A stretch of 14,891 nt of DNA, from assembly GCA_004211235.1 (NCBI GenBank), contig SEEY01000045.1, positions 1 through 14,891 of the forward strand, read 5' to 3'. This stretch comes from Rubrivivax sp. Its GTDB lineage: Bacteria; Pseudomonadota; Gammaproteobacteria; Burkholderiales; Burkholderiaceae. Both the position numbers and the translations under genes were made by a program. The notes below the pieces were generated by a model, which saw only the letters and a list, made by a program, of their open reading frames with translations, searched no databases and was not told the DNA's origin. This document shows positions 1 through 14,891 of this stretch, in pieces. How positions within the stretch are numbered: position 1 is the first letter of the stretch; each line of letters starts with the position of its first letter.

Positions 1-632
1 GCGCCGACGACGGCGTGGTCGGTGCGGTGGTTGGCGTTCTCGGTGGCCACGTACGGGCGGTCGATGCGGGCGTTCGCCTCCACCATGGTCGCCGCATAGC
101 CTCGCACGCTCTGCAGCAGCACCGGCATGCCGACGTGCAGGAACAGGCCGAAGCTGTGCGCCAGATCAGGCGACAGGCCCGGCAGTTCGCGGGCAATCGC
201 GGCCATCGCGATGGCGCGCTTGGCACTGCGCTCCCAGAAGCGCGCCAGCTGGGGCGAATTGACGGGAATCGCGTGCTGCACCAGAAAGCCGGTCATCACG
301 GCCACGCTCTCGCGCAGGCCGATGCGCGTCATGGCCTGGCCGACGGTGGTGCAGGGCAGGCCCACGGGCTTGAACAGCGGCCCGTTGGCGATGCGCAGCA
401 GCGTGGCGGCCATGGCCACGTCGCTGGAGGCGATGCGGGCGACGAGGTTGAGATCGGGCTCCGGCTGGCCCATCGCCTGCTGCAGCTGGGCCAGCAGCTC
501 GGGGCAGGGCGGGATCTGGATGTGCTGCAGCGGCCCACGGCGGCGCGACTGGTCGAGGTCGTCGCGGATCTGCTGGCTGCGCGTGCCAGGAACGGCGCTG
601 CCGTGGGAAGGTGCCGGGTTCTGCATGGCCAT
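1..632 (-). CDS. HDOD-domain protein (3' end outside window)
   Basis: The reverse strand reads about 210 codons without a stop from an ATG at 632 (MAMQNPAPSHGS...) and runs off the left edge, so the C-terminus is missing. Residues from about 40 onward (IPPCPELLAQLQQAM, then IASSDVAMAATLLRIANGPLF) match the start of an HDOD domain, an HD-like fold without the metal-binding HD pair that is found in bacterial signalling proteins. The Phe-Trp-Glu-Arg-Ser segment and following helices continue the domain. The start is supported by AAGGA six bases upstream (complement of 636-641). A downstream GGDEF, EAL or other output domain could lie beyond the edge. It is divergent from lapG. The target process is unknown; regulation of motility or c-di-GMP signalling is only a family-level guess. 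Confidence 0.85.
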   Translation of the reverse strand, partial: MAMQNPAPSHGSAVPGTRSQQIRDDLDQSRRRGPLQHIQIPPCPELLAQLQQAMGQPEPDLNLVARIASSDVAMAATLLRIANGPLFKPVGLPCTTVGQAMTRIGLRESVAVMTGFLVQHAIPVNSPQLARFWERSAKRAIAMAAIARELPGLSPDLAHSFGLFLHVGMPVLLQSVRGYAATMVEANARIDRPYVATENANHRTDHAVVG

Positions 633-792: not shown

Positions 793-1467
793 TTGCCGCC
801 TTCGCCCGCCTGTTTCGCCCTGCCGACCCGGCTGAGCCGGTGGTGGCTGGCCGCACTGGTCGTGCTGCCGCTGCTGGCCGCGGCGGCCTACGACGCGAGC
901 CGCGTGCTGGAGGCGGCAGCCCGGCGCGGCCCGCGCGTGGCCGAGCAGGCGCAGGCGCTGGTGCAGCTGATTGAGCGCAGCGGCACGGTCGAGGAGCTCC
1001 AGCGCCTCAAGGACATCAACGACTTCTTCAACCGGCGCCTGGCCTTCCGGGAAGACGCCGTCACCTGGGGCCTGCCCGACTACTGGGCCTCGCCGCTGGA
1101 GAGCCTGGACAAGCGCGCCGGCGACTGCGAGGACTACGCCATCGCCAAGTACTTCAGCCTCGCCGCCACCGGCGTGCCGACCGCCCGGCTGCGCATGGTC
1201 TACGTGCGGGCCCGGCTGCAGGGCCAGTCGCTGGCCCACATGGTGCTGGCCTACCATGCCGAGCCGGGCGCCGAGCCGCTGATCCTGGACAACCTGCGCC
1301 CCGAGGTGCTGCCCGCGTCGCAGCGCCCCGACCTGACGCCAGTGTTCAGCTTCAACACCGAGGGCCTGTGGCAGGGCGTGGGGCAGGTGGAGGCGGGCGA
1401 TCCGCTGGCGCGGCTGTCGCTGTGGCGCGAGCTCGTGGCCAAGGCGAGGGCGGAGGGATTTCTATGA
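793..1467 (+). CDS. lapG: LapG-type periplasmic cysteine protease
   Basis: This is a 224-residue bacterial transglutaminase-like cysteine protease. LapG cleaves the N-terminal retention region of giant LapA-type adhesins in the periplasm and so releases cells from surfaces; LapD holds it back when c-di-GMP is high. Residues 15-36 form a hydrophobic export or anchor segment. The triad is visible: Cys112 in GDCEDYAIAKY, His149 in LAHMVLA and Asp166 in ILDNL. The 37- and 17-residue spacings equal those of Pseudomonas LapG (Cys135, His172, Asp189). Acidic residues flank the Cys (D111, E113), as in the LapG calcium site. The start is uncertain: TTG at 793 is the first usable start after an in-frame TAG at 730-732, has no clear Shine-Dalgarno, and no ATG is available. 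lapD begins 10 bases after the stop, so the two are co-transcribed. Confidence 0.9.
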   Translation: MPPSPACFALPTRLSRWWLAALVVLPLLAAAAYDASRVLEAAARRGPRVAEQAQALVQLIERSGTVEELQRLKDINDFFNRRLAFREDAVTWGLPDYWASPLESLDKRAGDCEDYAIAKYFSLAATGVPTARLRMVYVRARLQGQSLAHMVLAYHAEPGAEPLILDNLRPEVLPASQRPDLTPVFSFNTEGLWQGVGQVEAGDPLARLSLWRELVAKARAEGFL

Positions 1468-1477: not shown

Positions 1478-2665
1478 ATGTCCTTGATGCGTCAGATCGC
1501 CTGGCTGGTGCTCGCCGTCGTGCTGGCCGCGCTGGTGGGGGCCGTCGGCCTGTCGACGCTGTCGCTGCGTCAGCTGATGCAGACGCAGCTGGAGCTGAAG
1601 AACGCCGACAACGCGCAGTCGCTGGCGCTGGCGCTGTCCCAGCAGCAGGGCGATGCCGAGCTCATCAAGCTGCTGGTGTCGGCGCAGTTCGACACCGGTG
1701 CCTATGAATTCGTGCGCTGGCGCGGCGCCAAGGGCGAGCTCTTGTTCGAGCGCGCCGGCGCCGCCGCTCAGGGGCGGTCGCCGGCCTGGTTTCGCGACCT
1801 CGTGGCCATCGACGCGCGGCCCGGCGTGGCGCAGCTGTCCAACGGCTGGAATGCCATCGGCTCGGTCGAGCTGAAGAGCCAGTCCAGCTACGCGCACGAC
1901 GCGTTGTGGCTGGCCTCGCGCCGGCTGCTGGCCTGGCTGCTGGTCGTCGGCATCGTCGCGGCGGTGGCGGCTTCGGCCGGCCTGCGGCGCATCCGCCGGC
2001 CGCTGGACGCCGCCGTGGCCCAGGCCGAGGGCGTGCTGGCCGGCAGCTACCGTCAGCTCACCGAGCCGCGCGTGCCGGAGCTGCAGCGGCTCACTCGGGC
2101 GATGAACGCGATGGTGCAGCGCGTGCGCGAGCTGTTCGAGGCGCAGGCCGGGCAGCTGCTCGTGCTGCGCGAGCAGGTGCACCACGACGCGCTCACCGGC
2201 GTGTCCACACGCAAGCATTTCCTGGCCGAGCTGGACGCCGCGCTGCAGCGCGACGACGGCCCCGCCGTGGCCGGCCTCGTCCTGCTGCGCCTGCGTGATC
2301 TCGCCGGCCTGAACGCGCGCCTGGGCCATGCCGCGGTGGACGACGTGCTGCTGACGGTGGTGGCGGCGCTCCAGGCCTATCCCGAGTCCGTGCCCGGCTG
2401 CCGCGTGGGCCGGCTCAATGGCGGCGACTTCGCGCTGTGGCTGCCGGCCGAAGGCGTGGCCGCCGAGTCGGCCCAGGCGCTGGCCGACGCGCTGCGCGCC
2501 AGCTTGCCGGCCTTCGGCGCCGGCGTTCAGGTGGCCCTGGGCGCGGTGGAGCTGCCGCGCGAGCGGCCGGGCAGCGTCTGGCTCGGCGAGGCCGACGCCG
2601 CGTTGGCGCGTGCCGAGCATCTGGGCGAATTGCGCGGCAGCTCCACCGCGCCCAGGGCCACCTGA
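1478..2665 (+). CDS. lapD: LapD N-terminal part (periplasmic, HAMP, degenerate GGDEF), truncated
   Basis: LapD is an inner-membrane c-di-GMP receptor that sequesters LapG through its periplasmic domain. This frame gives 395 residues: a membrane segment at about 5-27, a LapD/MoxY-type periplasmic domain at about 28-145, a second membrane segment at about 147-165, and a HAMP linker (RRIRRPLDAAVAQAEG) to about 220. A GGDEF domain follows, starting at HHDALTGVSTRKHF (about 234) and carrying the degenerate motif RLNGGDF (about 311-317), as expected for a receptor without cyclase activity. The frame ends with TGA at 2663-2665, inside the right arm of an inverted repeat, after about 12 residues encoded by that arm. 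Intact LapD proteins are about 640-650 residues and carry an EAL domain, whose C-terminal part lies downstream in another frame. As written this is a truncated product unable to bind c-di-GMP. Confidence 0.85.
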   Translation: MSLMRQIAWLVLAVVLAALVGAVGLSTLSLRQLMQTQLELKNADNAQSLALALSQQQGDAELIKLLVSAQFDTGAYEFVRWRGAKGELLFERAGAAAQGRSPAWFRDLVAIDARPGVAQLSNGWNAIGSVELKSQSSYAHDALWLASRRLLAWLLVVGIVAAVAASAGLRRIRRPLDAAVAQAEGVLAGSYRQLTEPRVPELQRLTRAMNAMVQRVRELFEAQAGQLLVLREQVHHDALTGVSTRKHFLAELDAALQRDDGPAVAGLVLLRLRDLAGLNARLGHAAVDDVLLTVVAALQAYPESVPGCRVGRLNGGDFALWLPAEGVAAESAQALADALRASLPAFGAGVQVALGAVELPRERPGSVWLGEADAALARAEHLGELRGSSTAPRAT

Positions 2666-2669
2666 ACGC
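2523..2669. repeat. 38-bp perfect inverted repeat inside lapD
   Basis: Bases 2523-2560 and 2632-2669 are exact reverse complements over 38 bp, with a 71-nt spacer (2561-2631); pairing ends at 2522/2670 and 2561/2631. The left arm encodes normal GGDEF sequence (VQVALGAVELP). The right arm is therefore a copy of it in inverted orientation, placed where the GGDEF-EAL linker and first part of the EAL domain should be. It introduces the lapD stop codon. No transposase, target duplication or terminal repeat features were seen. Confidence 0.95.
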
Positions 2670-3210
2670 GGTGCGGGCGCGCATGACCGCCCAGGTGGAC
2701 CTGTTCGCCGTTGGCCTGGCGTTGCAGGCCATCGCGGCCGATGGCCGTGCGCGCTGCATCAACGTGGCGCCGGTGTCGCTGGCCGATACCAGCTTCCTGC
2801 CGCAGTTGCGCGAGCTGCTCGCGCAGGCGCCCCAGGCCGCGCGTGCCTTGCTGCTCGACCTGGCCGAGGCCGCGGCGACCGATCATTTCGAGCGTCTGCT
2901 GGAGCTGGGCCGGCAGCTGCGGCCGCTGGGCGTGAAGCTCGGCCTGGAGCATGCCGGCGCCGGCCTCGCCCAGGTGGAGCGGCTCTACCAGGCCGGGCTG
3001 GACTACGTGAAGCTGGATGCGTCCGTCCTGCTGGGCGTGGCCGGGGAGGCGGGGCGCGCGGCGTTCGTGCGCGGCATGGTCATCATGCTGCGCAGCCTGG
3101 CGCTGAAGGTCTATGGCGAGGGCGTCGTCGACGGGATGGATGCGCAGGCCTTGTGGGACTGCGAGCTGGATGGGTTGACGGGGCCGTGGGTGACGGCGGC
3201 GCTGCGCTGA
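2670..3210 (+). pseudogene. lapD: LapD EAL-domain remnant, out of frame and lacking its beginning
   Basis: This frame continues as a degenerate EAL domain from VRARMTAQVDL to the TGA ending at 3210. Recognisable blocks are CINVAPVSLADTSF (the Asn-containing strand), LLLDLAEAA, LGLEHAGAG (at the place of the DDFGTG motif), LDYVKLD (D-x-x-K-x-D) and KVYGEGVVD (at the place of AEGVE). The front of the domain, including the strand that carries the EAL/EVL motif, is missing: roughly 70-80 residues by comparison with LapD architecture. The frame differs from that of the upstream lapD part. An ATG at 2683 could start a 175-residue product, but it would lack the EAL-motif strand and has no clear ribosome binding site. 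I read it as the 3' part of a rearranged lapD rather than a separate gene. Confidence 0.8.
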
Positions 3211-3347: not shown

Positions 3348-4289
3348 ATGCGCCTCGTCCTCGCGACCCTTGTTTCACTCACCCTGTGGCTGCCGTCCGC
3401 GCGTGCCGAGGAAGCCGGCTGCCCGCCCACCGCGCAGCCGCCCACGGCCGAGCAGATGCAGGCGGCGCAGGCGGCGGCGAAGGACCGCGGCGCGCTGTGG
3501 CAGTTGCGCAAGGACGGTCGCGTGTCCTACCTGTACGGCACCGTGCATGTCGGCAAGCTGGACTGGGCTTTTCCCGGGCCGCAGCTGCAGGCGGCGATGC
3601 GGGCGACGGAGGTGCTGGCCGTGGAGATCAATCCTCTCGAGCCTGGCTTCATGGCTGACGTCCAGACGGCGCAGGCGAAGGCCGCCAAGCTCGAACTGAC
3701 GAGCGCCGAACAGGCCCGCCTGGACGCCCAGGCCGACGCGGCGTGCCTGCCGCGCCCGGCGCTGGCTGCGCTTCACCCCGTGATGCAGGCCATCACCTAC
3801 GTCTCTCTGGCGGGCCGCCGCGACGGTCTCGATCCGGCCTTCGGCCAGGACATGGTGCTGCTCGGCGGCGCCCAGGCGCTCAAGCGGCCGGTCGTGGCGC
3901 TGGAGTCGGTGGCGAGCCAGATGGCGGTGCTGCTGCCGGCCGATCCGGCCGCGGCCCGCGAACTGCTCAACCAGACGCTGGACAGCCTGCAGCGTCAGGA
4001 AAGCCGCTTGTCGCTGAAACGCATCGGTCAGGCCTGGGAGGTGGGCGACCTCGATGTCATCGGCTCACCCGCCAAGCTGTGTGATTGCGTGCCGACCGCC
4101 CAGGAAATGCAGTTGATGCGCCGCCTCAACGATGACCGCAACCCGACCCTGGCCGACCGCATTGCCGAGGAGCATGCGAAGGGCAAGCCGTTGCTGGCGG
4201 CCGTGGGCACGCTGCACATGACCGGCCCCCAGGCCTTGCCGCGCCTGCTTCAGGAGCGTGGCTTCGAGGTGGAGCGCGTGAAGTACTGA
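3348..4289 (+). CDS. TraB/GumN family secreted protein
   Basis: The 313-residue product begins with a signal peptide (residues 1-20, cleavage likely at ARA/EE). The TraB/GumN fold is shown by YLYGTVHVGK (GTVH at 64-67) near the start, the central LESVASQ, NPTLADRI, and VGTLHMTG near the end (His at about 290). These histidine-bearing GxxH elements are the signature of this putative metal-dependent hydrolase clan, related to TIKI-type proteases; the bacterial function is mostly unknown. Extra cysteines, including a CDC triplet, suit an exported, disulfide-bearing protein. The ATG at 3348 directly precedes the signal peptide and the upstream Shine-Dalgarno is weak. It is 137 bases after lapD and convergent with the TonB receptor gene, with 13 bases between the stop codons. 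Confidence 0.85.
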   Translation: MRLVLATLVSLTLWLPSARAEEAGCPPTAQPPTAEQMQAAQAAAKDRGALWQLRKDGRVSYLYGTVHVGKLDWAFPGPQLQAAMRATEVLAVEINPLEPGFMADVQTAQAKAAKLELTSAEQARLDAQADAACLPRPALAALHPVMQAITYVSLAGRRDGLDPAFGQDMVLLGGAQALKRPVVALESVASQMAVLLPADPAAARELLNQTLDSLQRQESRLSLKRIGQAWEVGDLDVIGSPAKLCDCVPTAQEMQLMRRLNDDRNPTLADRIAEEHAKGKPLLAAVGTLHMTGPQALPRLLQERGFEVERVKY

Positions 4290-9233: not shown

Positions 9234-10088
9234 ATGACACGAACCGCCCGCTTCCTTGTCGCCGCCCTGGCCCTGATCGGCGCTTGCGCGCATGCCCAGC
9301 AGCAGGTGCTGCGCGTCACGGCCATTCCCGACGAATCACCCACCGAGCTGGCCCGCAAGTTCGCGCCGCTGGGCCAGTACCTGGAGAGCAAGCTCGGCAT
9401 GAAGGTCGAGTGGACGCCGGTGACCGACTACGCCGCGGCGGTCGAGACGGTCGTCAACAAGAAGATCGACCTGGCCTGGTTCGGCGGCTTCACCTTCGTG
9501 CAGGCCAATGTCCGTTCCGGCGGCAAGATCGTGCCGCTGGTGCAGCGCGAGGAGGACGAGAAGTTCCGCTCCGTCTTCATCACCGACAAGGCCAGTGGCA
9601 TCAACAAGCTCGAGGACCTGAAGGGCAAGACGCTGAGCTTCGGCTCGCAGAGCAGCACCTCGGGCCACCTGATGCCGCGCAGCTTCCTGCTGGCTGCCAA
9701 GGTCAACCCGGACGTGGACCTCAAGCGCGTGGCCTTCAGCGGCGCGCATGACGCCACCATCGCCGCCGTGGCCAGCGGCAAGGTCGACGCCGGCGCGCTC
9801 AACATCTCGGTGTGGGAGAAGTTCGTGGCCGACAAGAAGGTCGACCCGACCCAGGTCAAGGTGTTCTTCACGACGCCGGCCTACTACGACTACAACTGGA
9901 GCGTGCACGCCGACATGCCCCAGGCCCTGCAGGACAAGATCAAGGCCGCATTCCTGGCGCTGGACCCGAACACGCCCCAGGGCAAGGAAATCCTCGGCCT
10001 GCAGCGCGCCACCAAGTTCATCGCCACCAAGCCCGAGAACTACGTCGGCATCAAGGCCGCTGCCGAGAACGCCGGTTTGCTGAAGTGA
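9234..10088 (+). CDS. Periplasmic binding protein, phosphonate/phosphite/selenate-type ABC importer
   Basis: The 284-residue product belongs to the PhnD/SsuA/transferrin-like binding-protein superfamily. The signal peptide ends at CAHA/QQQ; the LIGAC stretch just before also resembles a lipobox, so membrane anchoring is possible. Diagnostic blocks are RVTAIPDESPTELARKFAPL, TPVTDYAAAVETVV, DLAWFGGFTFVQA, SVFITDKASGI, FGSQSSTSGHLMPR, VAFSGAHDATIAAVASGKVD and VFFTTPAYYDYNWSVH. From memory this wording is closest to the subgroup annotated as putative selenate importers; phosphite or phosphonate are the main alternatives. The ligand cannot be decided from sequence. It is followed by its ATPase and two permeases, so the importer is complete. 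The start ATG at 9234 lies seven bases after the mrp stop and has only a weak Shine-Dalgarno. Confidence 0.88.
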   Translation: MTRTARFLVAALALIGACAHAQQQVLRVTAIPDESPTELARKFAPLGQYLESKLGMKVEWTPVTDYAAAVETVVNKKIDLAWFGGFTFVQANVRSGGKIVPLVQREEDEKFRSVFITDKASGINKLEDLKGKTLSFGSQSSTSGHLMPRSFLLAAKVNPDVDLKRVAFSGAHDATIAAVASGKVDAGALNISVWEKFVADKKVDPTQVKVFFTTPAYYDYNWSVHADMPQALQDKIKAAFLALDPNTPQGKEILGLQRATKFIATKPENYVGIKAAAENAGLLK

Positions 10089-10097
10089 GCCCCTCGC

Positions 10098-10197
10098 CCA
10101 AGGAGTACCTTGGTCGGCCCCCCGAGGGGGCGGCGATGCTTGCCGGGTCGACCGGCGAGCACATCGCCTCACCGGGCCGGCTTGGGGGCGGCCCGGC
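10098..10197. repeat. Composite palindromic element between binding protein and ATPase
   Basis: Four stems follow one another. CCAAGG/CCTTGG: 10098-10103 with 10108-10113. GCCCCC/GGGGGC: 10117-10122 with 10126-10131. A long interrupted stem: GGCGATG 10132-10138 with CATCGCC 10162-10168, its inner part GCCGG 10142-10146 with CCGGC 10152-10156. CCGGGCCG/CGGCCCGG: 10172-10179 with 10189-10196. This density looks like a REP/BIME-type dispersed element, but copy number cannot be seen in one window. It contains the likely ATPase start codon (10136). In the mRNA it would protect the binding-protein message and damp ATPase translation. Confidence 0.7.
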
Positions 10198-11017
10198 GCT
10201 CGGCCCGCAACTGCTGGCGCTGAGCGGCCTCGATGCCGCAGCGCTCGGTGGCTCGACGCCGGTGCTGCGCAGCGTCGATCTGGCGCTCGCGGCCGGTGAC
10301 CAGGTCGCCGTCATCGGCGCCTCGGGCGCCGGCAAGACGACGCTGCTCAACCTGCTGGCACTGATGCAGGCGCCGCTGGCCGGCCGCCTCGCGCTGAACG
10401 GCATCGACCCGTGGGCGCTGGGCCGCCGCGAGCGCCAGCGCCTGCGCGCCGGCATCGCGCTGGCGCCGCAGCAGCCGCCGCTGCCGCCACGCCAGCGGGT
10501 GGCTGTCGCCGTGCTGGCCGCGCGGCTGCCGCGCATGTCGCTGGGCCGCGCGCTGCGCACGCTCTGGAGCCCGCCGGACGCGCCCCTGGCCCAGGCCGCG
10601 CTGGAGCAGCTGGACCTGCCCGACAAGCTCTGGCTGCGCGTCGACCGGCTCTCCGGCGGCGAGCGCCAGCGCGTCGGGCTGGCGCGGTTGCTGGTGTCCG
10701 AGGCACAGCTCTGGCTGGCCGACGAGCCGCTGGCCGCGCTGGACCCGACGCGTGCCGAGCTGTGCCTGGCCGCCCTGCGCCGCAACGCCGCCGAGCGCGG
10801 CGCCGCGCTGGTGTGCAGCCTGCACCAGGTGGACCTGGCGTTGAAGCACTTCCCGCGCGTCGTGGCGCTGCGGTCCGGCCGCGTCGTCTTCGACGGCCCG
10901 CCGGGCGGCCTGGACGAAGAGCTGCTGGAGGAGCTCTACAGCAGCCAGGCCGAGGCGCCGCCTGAGCTGGCGCCGCTGCCGCAGGCCGTGCCGCTGCCGC
11001 AGGCGATGTGCCGGTGA
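10136..11017 (+). CDS. ABC importer ATPase, PhnC-like
   Basis: The 293-residue product (from ATG 10136) is the cytoplasmic ATPase of the importer. Walker A is GASGAGKTT (61-69), the Q-loop is APQQPPLP, the signature LSGGERQR is at 172-179, Walker B with catalytic Glu is LWLADEPLA (about 192-200), and the switch His is in SLHQVDL (about 229). All are intact. The first 25 or so residues (MLAGSTGEHIASPGRLGGGP) are encoded by the palindromic element and do not look like ABC sequence; recognisable domain sequence starts at LLALSGLDAA. A non-ATG start (CTG near 10210) is thus possible, although no in-frame ATG or GTG lies between 10139 and the domain. The C-terminal tail is Pro/Ala-rich. The stop overlaps the next start by one base (TGATG). 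Confidence 0.9.
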   Translation: MLAGSTGEHIASPGRLGGGPALGPQLLALSGLDAAALGGSTPVLRSVDLALAAGDQVAVIGASGAGKTTLLNLLALMQAPLAGRLALNGIDPWALGRRERQRLRAGIALAPQQPPLPPRQRVAVAVLAARLPRMSLGRALRTLWSPPDAPLAQAALEQLDLPDKLWLRVDRLSGGERQRVGLARLLVSEAQLWLADEPLAALDPTRAELCLAALRRNAAERGAALVCSLHQVDLALKHFPRVVALRSGRVVFDGPPGGLDEELLEELYSSQAEAPPELAPLPQAVPLPQAMCR

Positions 11018-11820
11018 TGCGCGACCCCGACCAGGGGCGCCGCTGGGCCTTGCTGCTCGGCGCGCTGGTGCTGGCCTGGCCGCTGCTGGTGCTGGCCGAG
11101 TTCAAGCCCTGGGCCTTGTTCGACGAGCGCAGCCTGCGGGCCACGGGGCGCTTCCTGGTCCAGTTCCTCACGCCGCGGTCCGACGCCGAGTTCCTCGCCC
11201 TGCTGGCCCGCGACACCTGGCGCACGGTCGCCATCGCGACGGCCGGCATGAGCCTGGCGCTGCTGCTGGCGGTGCCGCTGGCGCTGGTGTCGACAGCGCG
11301 GCTGTCGGCCAGCACGCTGGAAGGCCGGCCCGGCCCGGCGCGCTGGCTGCGCCGCGTGGTGCGGGCGCTGCTGGTGCTGCTGCGGTCCATCCCCGAGCTG
11401 GTGTGGGCGCTGGTGTTCGTGCGCGTCGTCGGCCTGGGCGCCGCGGCCGGCGTGCTGGCCATCGCCATCGCCTACGGCGGCATGCTGGGCAAGGTCTACG
11501 CCGAGATCCTGGAGAGCGCCGACCCCGCGCCCACCCAGGCCCTGCTGCGCTCAGGCAGCGGCCGGCTGCAGGCCCTGCTGTTCGGCGCGCTGCCGAGCTG
11601 CGCGCCGGAGCTGCTGAGCTACACCGTCTACCGCTGGGAATGCGCGGTGCGCTCCTCCGTCGTGCTGGGTTTTGTCGGCGCGGGCGGGCTGGGCCAGCAG
11701 CTGGACAACGCCTCCAAGATGTTCGCCGGGGCCGAGGTCAGCGCCATCCTGCTGGTGTTCATCGCGCTGGTGATGGCCAGCGATGCGCTCAGCCACTGGC
11801 TGCGTGGGAGGCTGCAGTGA
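11017..11820 (+). CDS. ABC importer permease 1, PhnE-like
   Basis: The 267-residue inner-membrane protein has a first membrane helix at about 9-31, then helices near 75-100, 120-140, 145-165, 195-220 and 235-255. The permease EAA-type loop is present as YAEILESADPAPTQALLRSG followed by LFGALPSCAPELLSYTVYRWE, and the GFVGAGGLGQQL motif is typical of phosphonate-type permeases. ATG at 11017 was chosen because it overlaps the ATPase stop; a GTG nine bases upstream (11008) is in frame and possible. It forms the transmembrane channel with permease 2. Confidence 0.9.
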   Translation: MRDPDQGRRWALLLGALVLAWPLLVLAEFKPWALFDERSLRATGRFLVQFLTPRSDAEFLALLARDTWRTVAIATAGMSLALLLAVPLALVSTARLSASTLEGRPGPARWLRRVVRALLVLLRSIPELVWALVFVRVVGLGAAAGVLAIAIAYGGMLGKVYAEILESADPAPTQALLRSGSGRLQALLFGALPSCAPELLSYTVYRWECAVRSSVVLGFVGAGGLGQQLDNASKMFAGAEVSAILLVFIALVMASDALSHWLRGRLQ

Positions 11821-14024: not shown

Positions 14025-14891
14025 AGATCAGCCGCCGCGCCTACGCCGAGATGCTCGGCCCCACCGTCGGCGACAAGCTGCGCCTGGCCGACACCGCCCT
14101 CATCATCGAAATCGAGCAAGACCTGACCCTGCGCGCCGGCGGCTACGGCGAAGAGGTCAAGTTCGGCGGCGGCAAGACCGTGCGCGACGGCATGGGCCAG
14201 TCCCAGCGCATCAACGGCCCAGGGCTGGGTGACGCCGTCGACACCGTCATCACCAACGTCGTCATCCTCGACCACTGGGGCATCGTCAAGGCCGACATCG
14301 GCCTGCGCGGCTGCCGCATCGCCGCCATCGGCAAGGCCGGCAACCCCGACGTGCAGCCCGGTGTGGACATCGTCATCGGCCCCGGCACCGAGATCATTGC
14401 GGGCGAGGGCTTCATCGTCACGCCCGGCGCCATCGACACCCACATCCACTTCATCTGCCCGCAGCAGATCGAAGAGGCGCTGATGAGCGGCGTCACCACC
14501 ATGATTGGCGGCGGCACCGGGCCGGCCACCGGCACCAATGCGACCACCTGCACCTCGGGGCCGTGGCACATGGCGCGCATGCTCCAGGCTGCCGATGCCT
14601 TCGCCATGAACATCGGTTTCACCGGCAAGGGCAACGCCAGCCTGCCCGAGCCGCTGATAGAGCAGGTCAAGGCCGGGGCCATCGGCCTCAAGCTGCACGA
14701 GGACTGGGGCACTACCCCGGCAGCCATCGACAATTGCCTGAGCGTGGCCGATCAATACGACGTGCAGGTTGCGATCCACACCGACACCCTCAACGAGTCG
14801 GGCTTCGTCGAGACCACTCTGGCCGCCTTCAAGGGCCGCACCATCCACACCTACCATACCGAAGGCGCCGGCGGCGGCCACGCCCCGGACA
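14021..14891 (+). CDS. ureC: Urease alpha (catalytic) subunit, 3' end outside window
   Basis: The first 290 codons of the roughly 570-residue catalytic subunit are present. It starts [20 protein letters not shown]. Nickel ligands and active-site residues can be placed with a constant offset of 7 from Klebsiella numbering: His141 and His143 in DTHIHF (134, 136), Lys224 in GLKLHEDWG (217, carbamylated), His253 in VAIHTDT (246) and His279 in [11 protein letters not shown] (272). The offset comes from the longer [13 protein letters not shown] loop of this urease type. The distal Asp ligand and mobile-flap His lie beyond the window. All visible active-site residues are intact, so a working urease is expected, given accessory genes further downstream. 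Confidence 0.97.

What the first reader, a model, noticed from the sequence alone, without database searches (positions are those of the whole stretch)
2523..2669. lapD interrupted by a 38-bp inverted copy of its own sequence with loss of about 70-80 codons
Bases 2632-2669 are an exact reverse complement of 2523-2560. The left arm is native GGDEF coding sequence, so the right arm is an inverted copy sitting where the GGDEF-EAL linker and the start of the EAL domain should be. The frame shifts across it and the segment carrying the EAL/EVL strand is absent. An inverted copy plus deletion, without any mobile-element feature, is the signature of template switching or fold-back during replication. 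The same pattern is produced by chimeric reads or a mis-assembled palindrome, so it is either an unusual mutation or an assembly fault.
Basis: partly seen in the sequence, partly recalled or inferred. Interest (0 to 1): 0.7.

Follow-up and report, generated by a model that had tools for sequence, protein, structure and literature searches.

The report
lapD broken by foldback-type inverted insertion
A biofilm-control gene in an unidentified Roseateles-like bacterium has lost about 72 codons and gained a short backwards copy of its own sequence, the scar expected when a DNA end folds back and copies itself; it looks like an ordinary kind of mutation, although a laboratory-made chimeric molecule cannot be ruled out without the reads.

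Summary
Bases 2632-2669 are the exact reverse complement of 2523-2560; the longest inverted match in 200 simulated windows was 24 bp. Against lapD in 19 related loci (of 67 fetched), the left arm is native. The right arm stands where 216 bp lie in 17 of 19 (219 and 222 bp in two): the end of the GGDEF-EAL linker and the first 50 EAL residues. Against the 216-bp relatives the net change is -187 bp, so the frame shifts. The 395-aa product keeps periplasmic, HAMP-like and GGDEF regions and loses EAL.

The left junction overlaps native sequence by 7 bp (10 of 11 with one mismatch), paired across a 71-nt loop; the right by 2 bp (3 bp if the ancestor was like 3 of 19 relatives). Foldback insertions at yeast breaks have the same form (PMC11724301). 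A purely computational mis-join is unlikely with such short overlaps. A chimera made in vitro remains possible: the window is one whole contig and no reads are held. The downstream EAL part shows no relaxed constraint, so the event is recent or artificial.

The parts
793..1467 (+). lapG homologue (bacterial transglutaminase-like cysteine protease), open frame intact, directly upstream
   Evidence: PF06035 E 7.9e-17; NF045674 LapG 205.7 bits, under that model's cut-off of 320; 224 of 224 residues aligned to L021
1478..2665 (+). truncated lapD, 395 aa: LapD_MoxY_N periplasmic domain, HAMP-like region, GGDEF, then an 8-residue tail from the inverted copy; stop TGA 2663-2665 lies inside the inverted arm
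   Evidence: PF16448 and PF00990 above cut-off, HAMP 20.7 bits under its cut-off of 25; model mean pLDDT 77, pTM 0.42, residues 182-199 and 388-395 under 50
2523..2560 (+). left arm: native GGDEF coding sequence, template of the inverted copy
   Evidence: aligned in 19 of 19 relatives; base 2527 T not found in any of the 19
2554..2560 (+). GCCGCGC, pairing partner of the priming site 2632-2638
2561..2631 (+). 71-nt spacer, native sequence, loop of the hairpin
2632..2638 (+). left junction: 7-bp overlap GCGCGGC shared by native continuation and inverted copy; next native base is G in 19 of 19 relatives, A in the window
   Evidence: 7 bp or more in 0.3% of random inverted junctions
2632..2669 (+). 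right arm: exact inverted copy of 2523-2560
2668..2669 (+). right junction: 2-bp overlap GC (3 bp if the ancestor had C at 2667, as L005, L012 and L014 do); native sequence resumes at the codon equivalent to P0003 residue 460
2671..3210 (+). orphan 3' part of lapD: EAL domain from profile position 57 on; ATG-started reading 2683-3210, 175 aa
   Evidence: PF00563 E 5.1e-25, profile 57-233 of 236; P0121

Best explanation
A recent mutation inside the cell. A DNA 3' end within lapD (a resected break end or a stalled nascent strand) ending at about 2632-2638 folded back. Its GCGCGGC paired with GCCGCGC 71 nt upstream on the same strand, and a polymerase copied about 31 nt of the strand back on itself (2553 to 2523). 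The hairpin then opened and the new end was joined, with only 2-3 bp of help, to sequence about 216 bp further on. The first junction fits hairpin-primed synthesis and the second fits end joining or re-annealing. The result is a LapD without EAL, so without c-di-GMP control. Shown: the sequence anatomy and junctions relative to relatives. Inferred: the order of steps, the in vivo origin, and break repair versus replication-fork switching (I lean slightly to break repair). Inferred consequence: a c-di-GMP-blind protein, more likely null for LapG control than partly locked on, because the EAL site is required for LapG inhibition in P. fluorescens.
For: Exact 38/38 inverted copy of the lineage's own DNA, including a base (2527 T, copied as 2665 A) absent from the 19 relatives aligned. 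Left overlap 7 bp exact, 10 of 11 with one mismatch; 7 bp or more occurs in 0.3% of random inverted junctions simulated on L006 lapD. The complementary 7-mers pre-exist in 5 of 19 relatives. Yeast break repair gives the same form: imperfect 10-bp inverted microhomology, 41-nt loop, 0-5 bp (median 2) at the other end, insertions of 10 to over 150 bp (PMC11724301 section 15). Ku is present in 4 of 8 related genomes. No other lesion was seen in the window genes that had a relative to compare. The downstream EAL part is mid-rank in constraint, 9th of 18. If the copy were as old as the split from the nearest locus, about 4.7 arm differences are expected, P(0) about 0.01; if half as old, P(0) about 0.10.
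Against: One contig only; no reads, no second isolate. The nearest lapD in the 20 genus-level genomes searched is 88% identical. Recent origin is also what an artefact predicts. Ku was not found in the genome of the locus closest by lapD DNA, L006/G004, nor in three others of the eight. In a Salmonella study the microhomology cut-off deduced from verification was 12 bp or more for inversions (PMC3411829, passages), above the 7 bp here. The 2-bp right overlap is not informative: 25% of random junctions reach it. The N-terminal part of the gene ranks 15th of 18 in constraint, so the gene as a whole is not unusually conserved in this lineage.
Confidence: 0.6

Rival explanations
1. In vitro chimera: template switching during whole-genome amplification, or fold-back priming during library end repair plus a second join, gave a molecule that the assembler took into the consensus.
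For: Inverted chimeras are the dominant single-end type in MDA data, on average 91% (PMC6515389, passages). Self-pairing single-strand ends give inverted-repeat chimeric reads in libraries (PMC10908179, passages). Single contig, exact arms, no relaxed constraint downstream.
Against: Needs two joins on one molecule, or two chimeric molecules meeting in 38 bp, and a lack of intact reads to win the consensus of a 14.9-kb contig (inference). No second exact inverted repeat of 18 bp or more in the window and no other lesion seen. Whether the sample was amplified is unknown.
Confidence: 0.33
2. Pure assembly mis-join with no chimeric molecule.
For: Palindromes do trouble assemblers (general knowledge).
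Against: Native and inserted sequence share only 7 and 2-3 bp at the junctions, far below usual k-mer or overlap lengths (general knowledge). The arms would have to exist already for a palindrome to be mis-resolved.
Confidence: 0.05
3. An invertible DNA switch (intragenic inverton): 38-bp inverted repeats flanking a 71-bp flippable segment.
For: Size and geometry of the repeats.
Against: The right arm replaced about 216 bp of native lapD that flipping cannot restore. 0 of 19 relatives aligned have the right arm. No recombinase family among the window genes run against family libraries (the second PhnE-like gene and ureA were not run).
Confidence: 0.02

Closest known systems
Local foldback insertions at double-strand breaks in yeast (PMC11724301, abstract and section 15 read)
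   Same: Short inverted copy of adjacent sequence, imperfect inverted microhomology of about 10 bp with a loop of tens of nt, second junction with about 2 bp
   Different: Yeast and an induced break there; here a bacterium, no known break, and a deletion of about 216 bp
Short-range template-switch mutation, four-point model (PMC7954356, passages read)
   Same: Three fragments L-1, 2-3 (reverse complement), 4-R describe this allele fully and create a perfect inverted repeat
   Different: Described there in great apes; mechanism-agnostic; whether jumps of this size are typical was not checked
Quasipalindrome-associated template-switch mutation in E. coli (PMC7202029, passages read)
   Same: Nascent strand uses itself as template after pairing of an imperfect inverted repeat
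   Different: The outcome described there makes an existing imperfect repeat more perfect and returns to the correct template; here the pre-existing pairing was only about 7-11 bp and the return point is about 216 bp away
LapD c-di-GMP receptor with LapG protease (PMC3032553, PMC3032545, PMC4359373, passages read)
   Same: Adjacent lapG; LapD_MoxY_N, GGDEF, EAL order in the intact relatives scanned, P0003 and P0008
   Different: This allele lacks part of the linker and the N-terminal part of EAL; the GWxQ loop reads GWNA, or GWSA/GWTA in some relatives

Membership tests
Foldback/template-switch insertion mutation | Inserted segment is the reverse complement of nearby sequence | tested here: met
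   38 of 38 bases, 71 nt away
Foldback/template-switch insertion mutation | Inverted microhomology at the priming junction | tested here: met
   7 bp exact, 10 of 11 imperfect, using the native base G found at 2639 in 19 of 19 relatives; chance 0.003
Foldback/template-switch insertion mutation | Ancestral state without the insert in relatives | tested here: met
   19 of 19 aligned relatives (of 67 loci) have the native stretch
Foldback/template-switch insertion mutation | Present in the organism's genome, not only in one assembly | not testable with these tools
   no reads, no own genome held, one contig in the protein database
LapD | LapD/MoxY periplasmic output domain and GGDEF | tested here: met
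   PF16448 and PF00990 above cut-off
LapD | HAMP domain | tested here: inconclusive
   HAMP 20.7 bits, under the 25-bit cut-off; not listed for intact P0003 and P0008 either
LapD | Complete EAL domain that binds c-di-GMP | tested here: not met
   EAL matched only from profile position 56-57 on and the frame is broken; this is a broken LapD allele; binding itself was not tested
LapD | Encoded beside LapG | tested here: met
   PF06035 gene ends at 1467, lapD starts at 1478
Inverton | Both orientations of the segment occur | not testable with these tools
   no reads
Inverton | Repeat pair conserved as a unit in relatives | tested here: not met
   right arm in 0 of 19 relatives

The most novel reading that the evidence does not exclude
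A real bacterial case of the foldback-plus-end-joining break-repair outcome known from yeast, which in one step removed the c-di-GMP receptor domain from LapD. It would leave a c-di-GMP-blind protein that still carries the LapG-binding output domain, without the S-helix-EAL autoinhibition, and the allele may be favoured because it fixes the adhesion state.
Probability: 0.12. Interest if true: 0.5.

Novelty: new member of a known kind. Interest (0 to 1): 0.3.

Why it matters
If real, it is a clean, base-resolved natural example in a bacterium of a hairpin-primed inverted insertion with deletion; both junctions can be read because relatives show the ancestral state. It also predicts a bacterium whose LapD can no longer sense c-di-GMP. 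If artificial, it shows how a convincing 'mutation' can enter a contig, which matters for calling pseudogenes from assemblies.

Tried and rejected
Chance repeat: rejected. Mobile element or known structured RNA at the site: the left arm is native and the right arm is a copy of it; the only Rfam match at gathering threshold in the window is elsewhere. Same-species intact or broken copy: none found. The nearest lapD was 88% identical over the 20 genomes searched (I asked for up to 200); the best proteins were 91% identical in the N-terminal part (best 120 of 1271 listed). That database is clustered at 90%, so an intact same-species copy could be hidden inside a cluster. Same junction elsewhere: the left-junction 21-mer gave 0 hits in viral contigs, a weak test, since that collection is not where this bacterium would be. 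The right-junction 24-mer was in 0 of 77 loci. The 192-aa reading across the right junction gave 70 hits; of the 190 proteins listed, none holds any of four 6-residue words of that reading's inverted-arm part, and only P0001, the window's own, holds the tail words of the truncated protein. P0121, the window's own EAL fragment, starts at 2683, so it does not contain the junction; its cluster counts 9 member sequences with one contig shown, and I could not see the others. Lineage-private substitutions were few (N part 5, all nonsynonymous; C part 2 synonymous and 1 nonsynonymous), so nonsynonymous fractions were used. Base rate: a scan of all 67 loci (891,128 bases) gave 5 inverted repeats with arms of 24 bp or more and loops of 20 to 500, none inside lapD by coordinates. 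A 183-bp palindrome in L067 from the first scan is a run of 366 N. Rows dropped: 19 of 67 loci were aligned; 17 of those 19 (without L002 and L012, which differ in length) were used. Plasmid search: one short partial match. Papers on LapD looked into for a tested EAL-less LapD: none was seen in the passages shown. A solved-structure search with P0003 gave a P. fluorescens-type c-di-GMP binding protein as best match (3pjw) and was not taken further. One listing on evolved lapD mutations gave three papers, not opened.

Full report
What is there. Window bases 2632-2669 are the exact reverse complement of 2523-2560, with 71 nt between the arms. In 200 third-order Markov simulations of the window the longest inverted match at any spacing was 24 bp, and the second longest real one in the window is 17 bp. 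As single-stranded DNA, 2515-2677 folds at -88.2 kcal/mol against a shuffle mean of -52.4 (z -11.5). No whole genome is held for the window. The protein database lists the 395-aa product on one contig of 14,891 bases, the window's length, so the window is taken to be the whole contig.

The gene. The 395-aa reading 1478-2665 matches LapD_MoxY_N and GGDEF, and HAMP below its cut-off; the downstream part matches EAL from profile position 57 on. A lapG-type gene lies directly upstream. Of the 120 homologues listed, 108 are 637-644 aa (range 329-667), up to 91% identical over the N-terminal part; many that bear a name are called Roseateles or Pelomonas. The genome collection gave 67 loci, matching the query from residue 1 to residue 607-640.

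Base-resolved comparison. I aligned 19 of the 67 loci at the site. The left arm is native in 19 of 19; the right arm is in none of them. Going right, the window follows native sequence to 2638 (GCGCGGC), where 19 of 19 continue with G and the window continues with the inverted copy. It rejoins native sequence at 2668. The stretch in between is 216 bp in 17 of 19, 219 in L002 and 222 in L012: 72 codons, P0003 residues 388-459. The EAL model starts at residue 410 of P0003, so 22 linker residues and the first 50 EAL residues are gone. Against the 216-bp relatives the net change is -187 bp, hence the frameshift; the stop codon 2663-2665 lies inside the inverted arm.

Junctions. The first junction shares 7 bp (10 of 11 allowing one mismatch) between native continuation and inverted copy. 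Random inverted junctions on L006 lapD reach 7 bp in 0.3% of cases. The second junction shares 2 bp if the ancestor had G at 2667, as 16 of 19 relatives do, or 3 bp if it had C, as L005, L012 and L014 do; 25% of random junctions reach 2 bp. The complementary 7-mers already exist in 5 of 19 relatives, so the site was predisposed in part of the clade. The one base of the left arm absent from the 19 relatives (2527 T) is present in the copy (2665 A), so the copy was made from this lineage's own DNA.

Mechanism. This is the pattern of hairpin-primed self-copying followed by a join. In yeast, foldback insertions at an induced break had an imperfect 10-bp inverted microhomology separated by 41 bp, lengths of 10 to over 150 bp with many shorter ones, and 0-5 bp (median 2) at the other end (PMC11724301, abstract and section 15). 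The four-point template-switch model (PMC7954356, passages) and the E. coli quasipalindrome model (PMC7202029, passages) describe replication versions of the same step. Sequence alone does not separate break repair from fork switching. Ku, the end-joining protein, is in 4 of 8 related genomes searched but was not found in four, among them that of the locus closest by lapD DNA.

Real or artificial. Overlaps of 7 and 2-3 bp are too short for an assembler to invent the joins (inference from usual k-mer lengths), so a molecule with these joins was probably sequenced. In vitro sources exist: MDA (PMC6515389, passages) and library self-priming (PMC10908179, passages). In a Salmonella study the microhomology cut-off deduced from verification was 12 bp or more for inversions (PMC3411829, passages), which counts against over-reading 7 bp. 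The downstream EAL part has an ordinary nonsynonymous fraction, 9th of 18 taxa, and no stop in the 173 codons compared; the N-terminal part ranks 15th of 18. If the copy dated from the split with the nearest locus, about 4.7 arm differences would be expected and none is seen (P about 0.01; about 0.10 if half as old). So the event is recent, or not biological. I put a genuine in vivo event at about 0.6.

Consequence if real. The AlphaFold model of the 395-aa product (26-sequence alignment, mean pLDDT 77, pTM 0.42) has helices and strands in an order that fits a periplasmic domain, long helices and a complete GGDEF domain, with residues 182-199 and the last 8 under pLDDT 50; the low pTM means the arrangement of domains is not to be trusted. 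In P. fluorescens, c-di-GMP binding by EAL is needed for LapG inhibition (PMC3032545, passages), which predicts a null allele. But the S-helix-EAL contact is what holds LapD off (PMC3032553, passages) and the isolated output domain can bind LapG (PMC4359373, passages), which leaves a weak constitutive state possible. I lean to null.

Known or new. The kind of mutation is known. A bacterial example with both junctions resolved against relatives is useful but not surprising. My searches on template switching and foldback listed many eukaryotic papers and E. coli quasipalindrome work; they were seen as listings apart from the papers named, so I make no claim that bacterial cases are unpublished.

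Noticed in passing
window 14179-14477, - strand: Rfam RF02514 (5' ureB sRNA) match, 98.9 bits against a cut-off of 40, antisense to ureC.
   Followed up: no
L002 7989-8501 and L005 8090-8592: Element of about 500 bp with 62-bp perfect inverted ends just downstream of lapD in two loci, MITE-like in shape (my reading); the window has no inverted repeat of that length.
   Followed up: partly
window 3348-4289: TraB/PrgY/GumN-family gene (PF01963) between lapD and the TonB receptor gene; among the 67 loci only L034 gave a tblastn match (77%), and in L014 the receptor gene follows lapD directly. Loci reach only about 6 kb either side.
   Followed up: partly
window 9234-11820: PhnD/PhnC/PhnE-like transporter; the binding protein scores above the cut-off of TIGR04553, putative selenate binding protein; no locus matched the PhnE readings tried, but loci reach only about 6 kb either side of lapD.
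   Followed up: no
window 1478-2665 and relatives: The GWxQ motif for LapG binding in P. fluorescens LapD reads GWNA here, GWSA or GWTA in some relatives (motif from PMC4359373).
   Followed up: no
G001, G002, G003, G006: Two Ku genes each in four related genomes, none found in four others.
   Followed up: no
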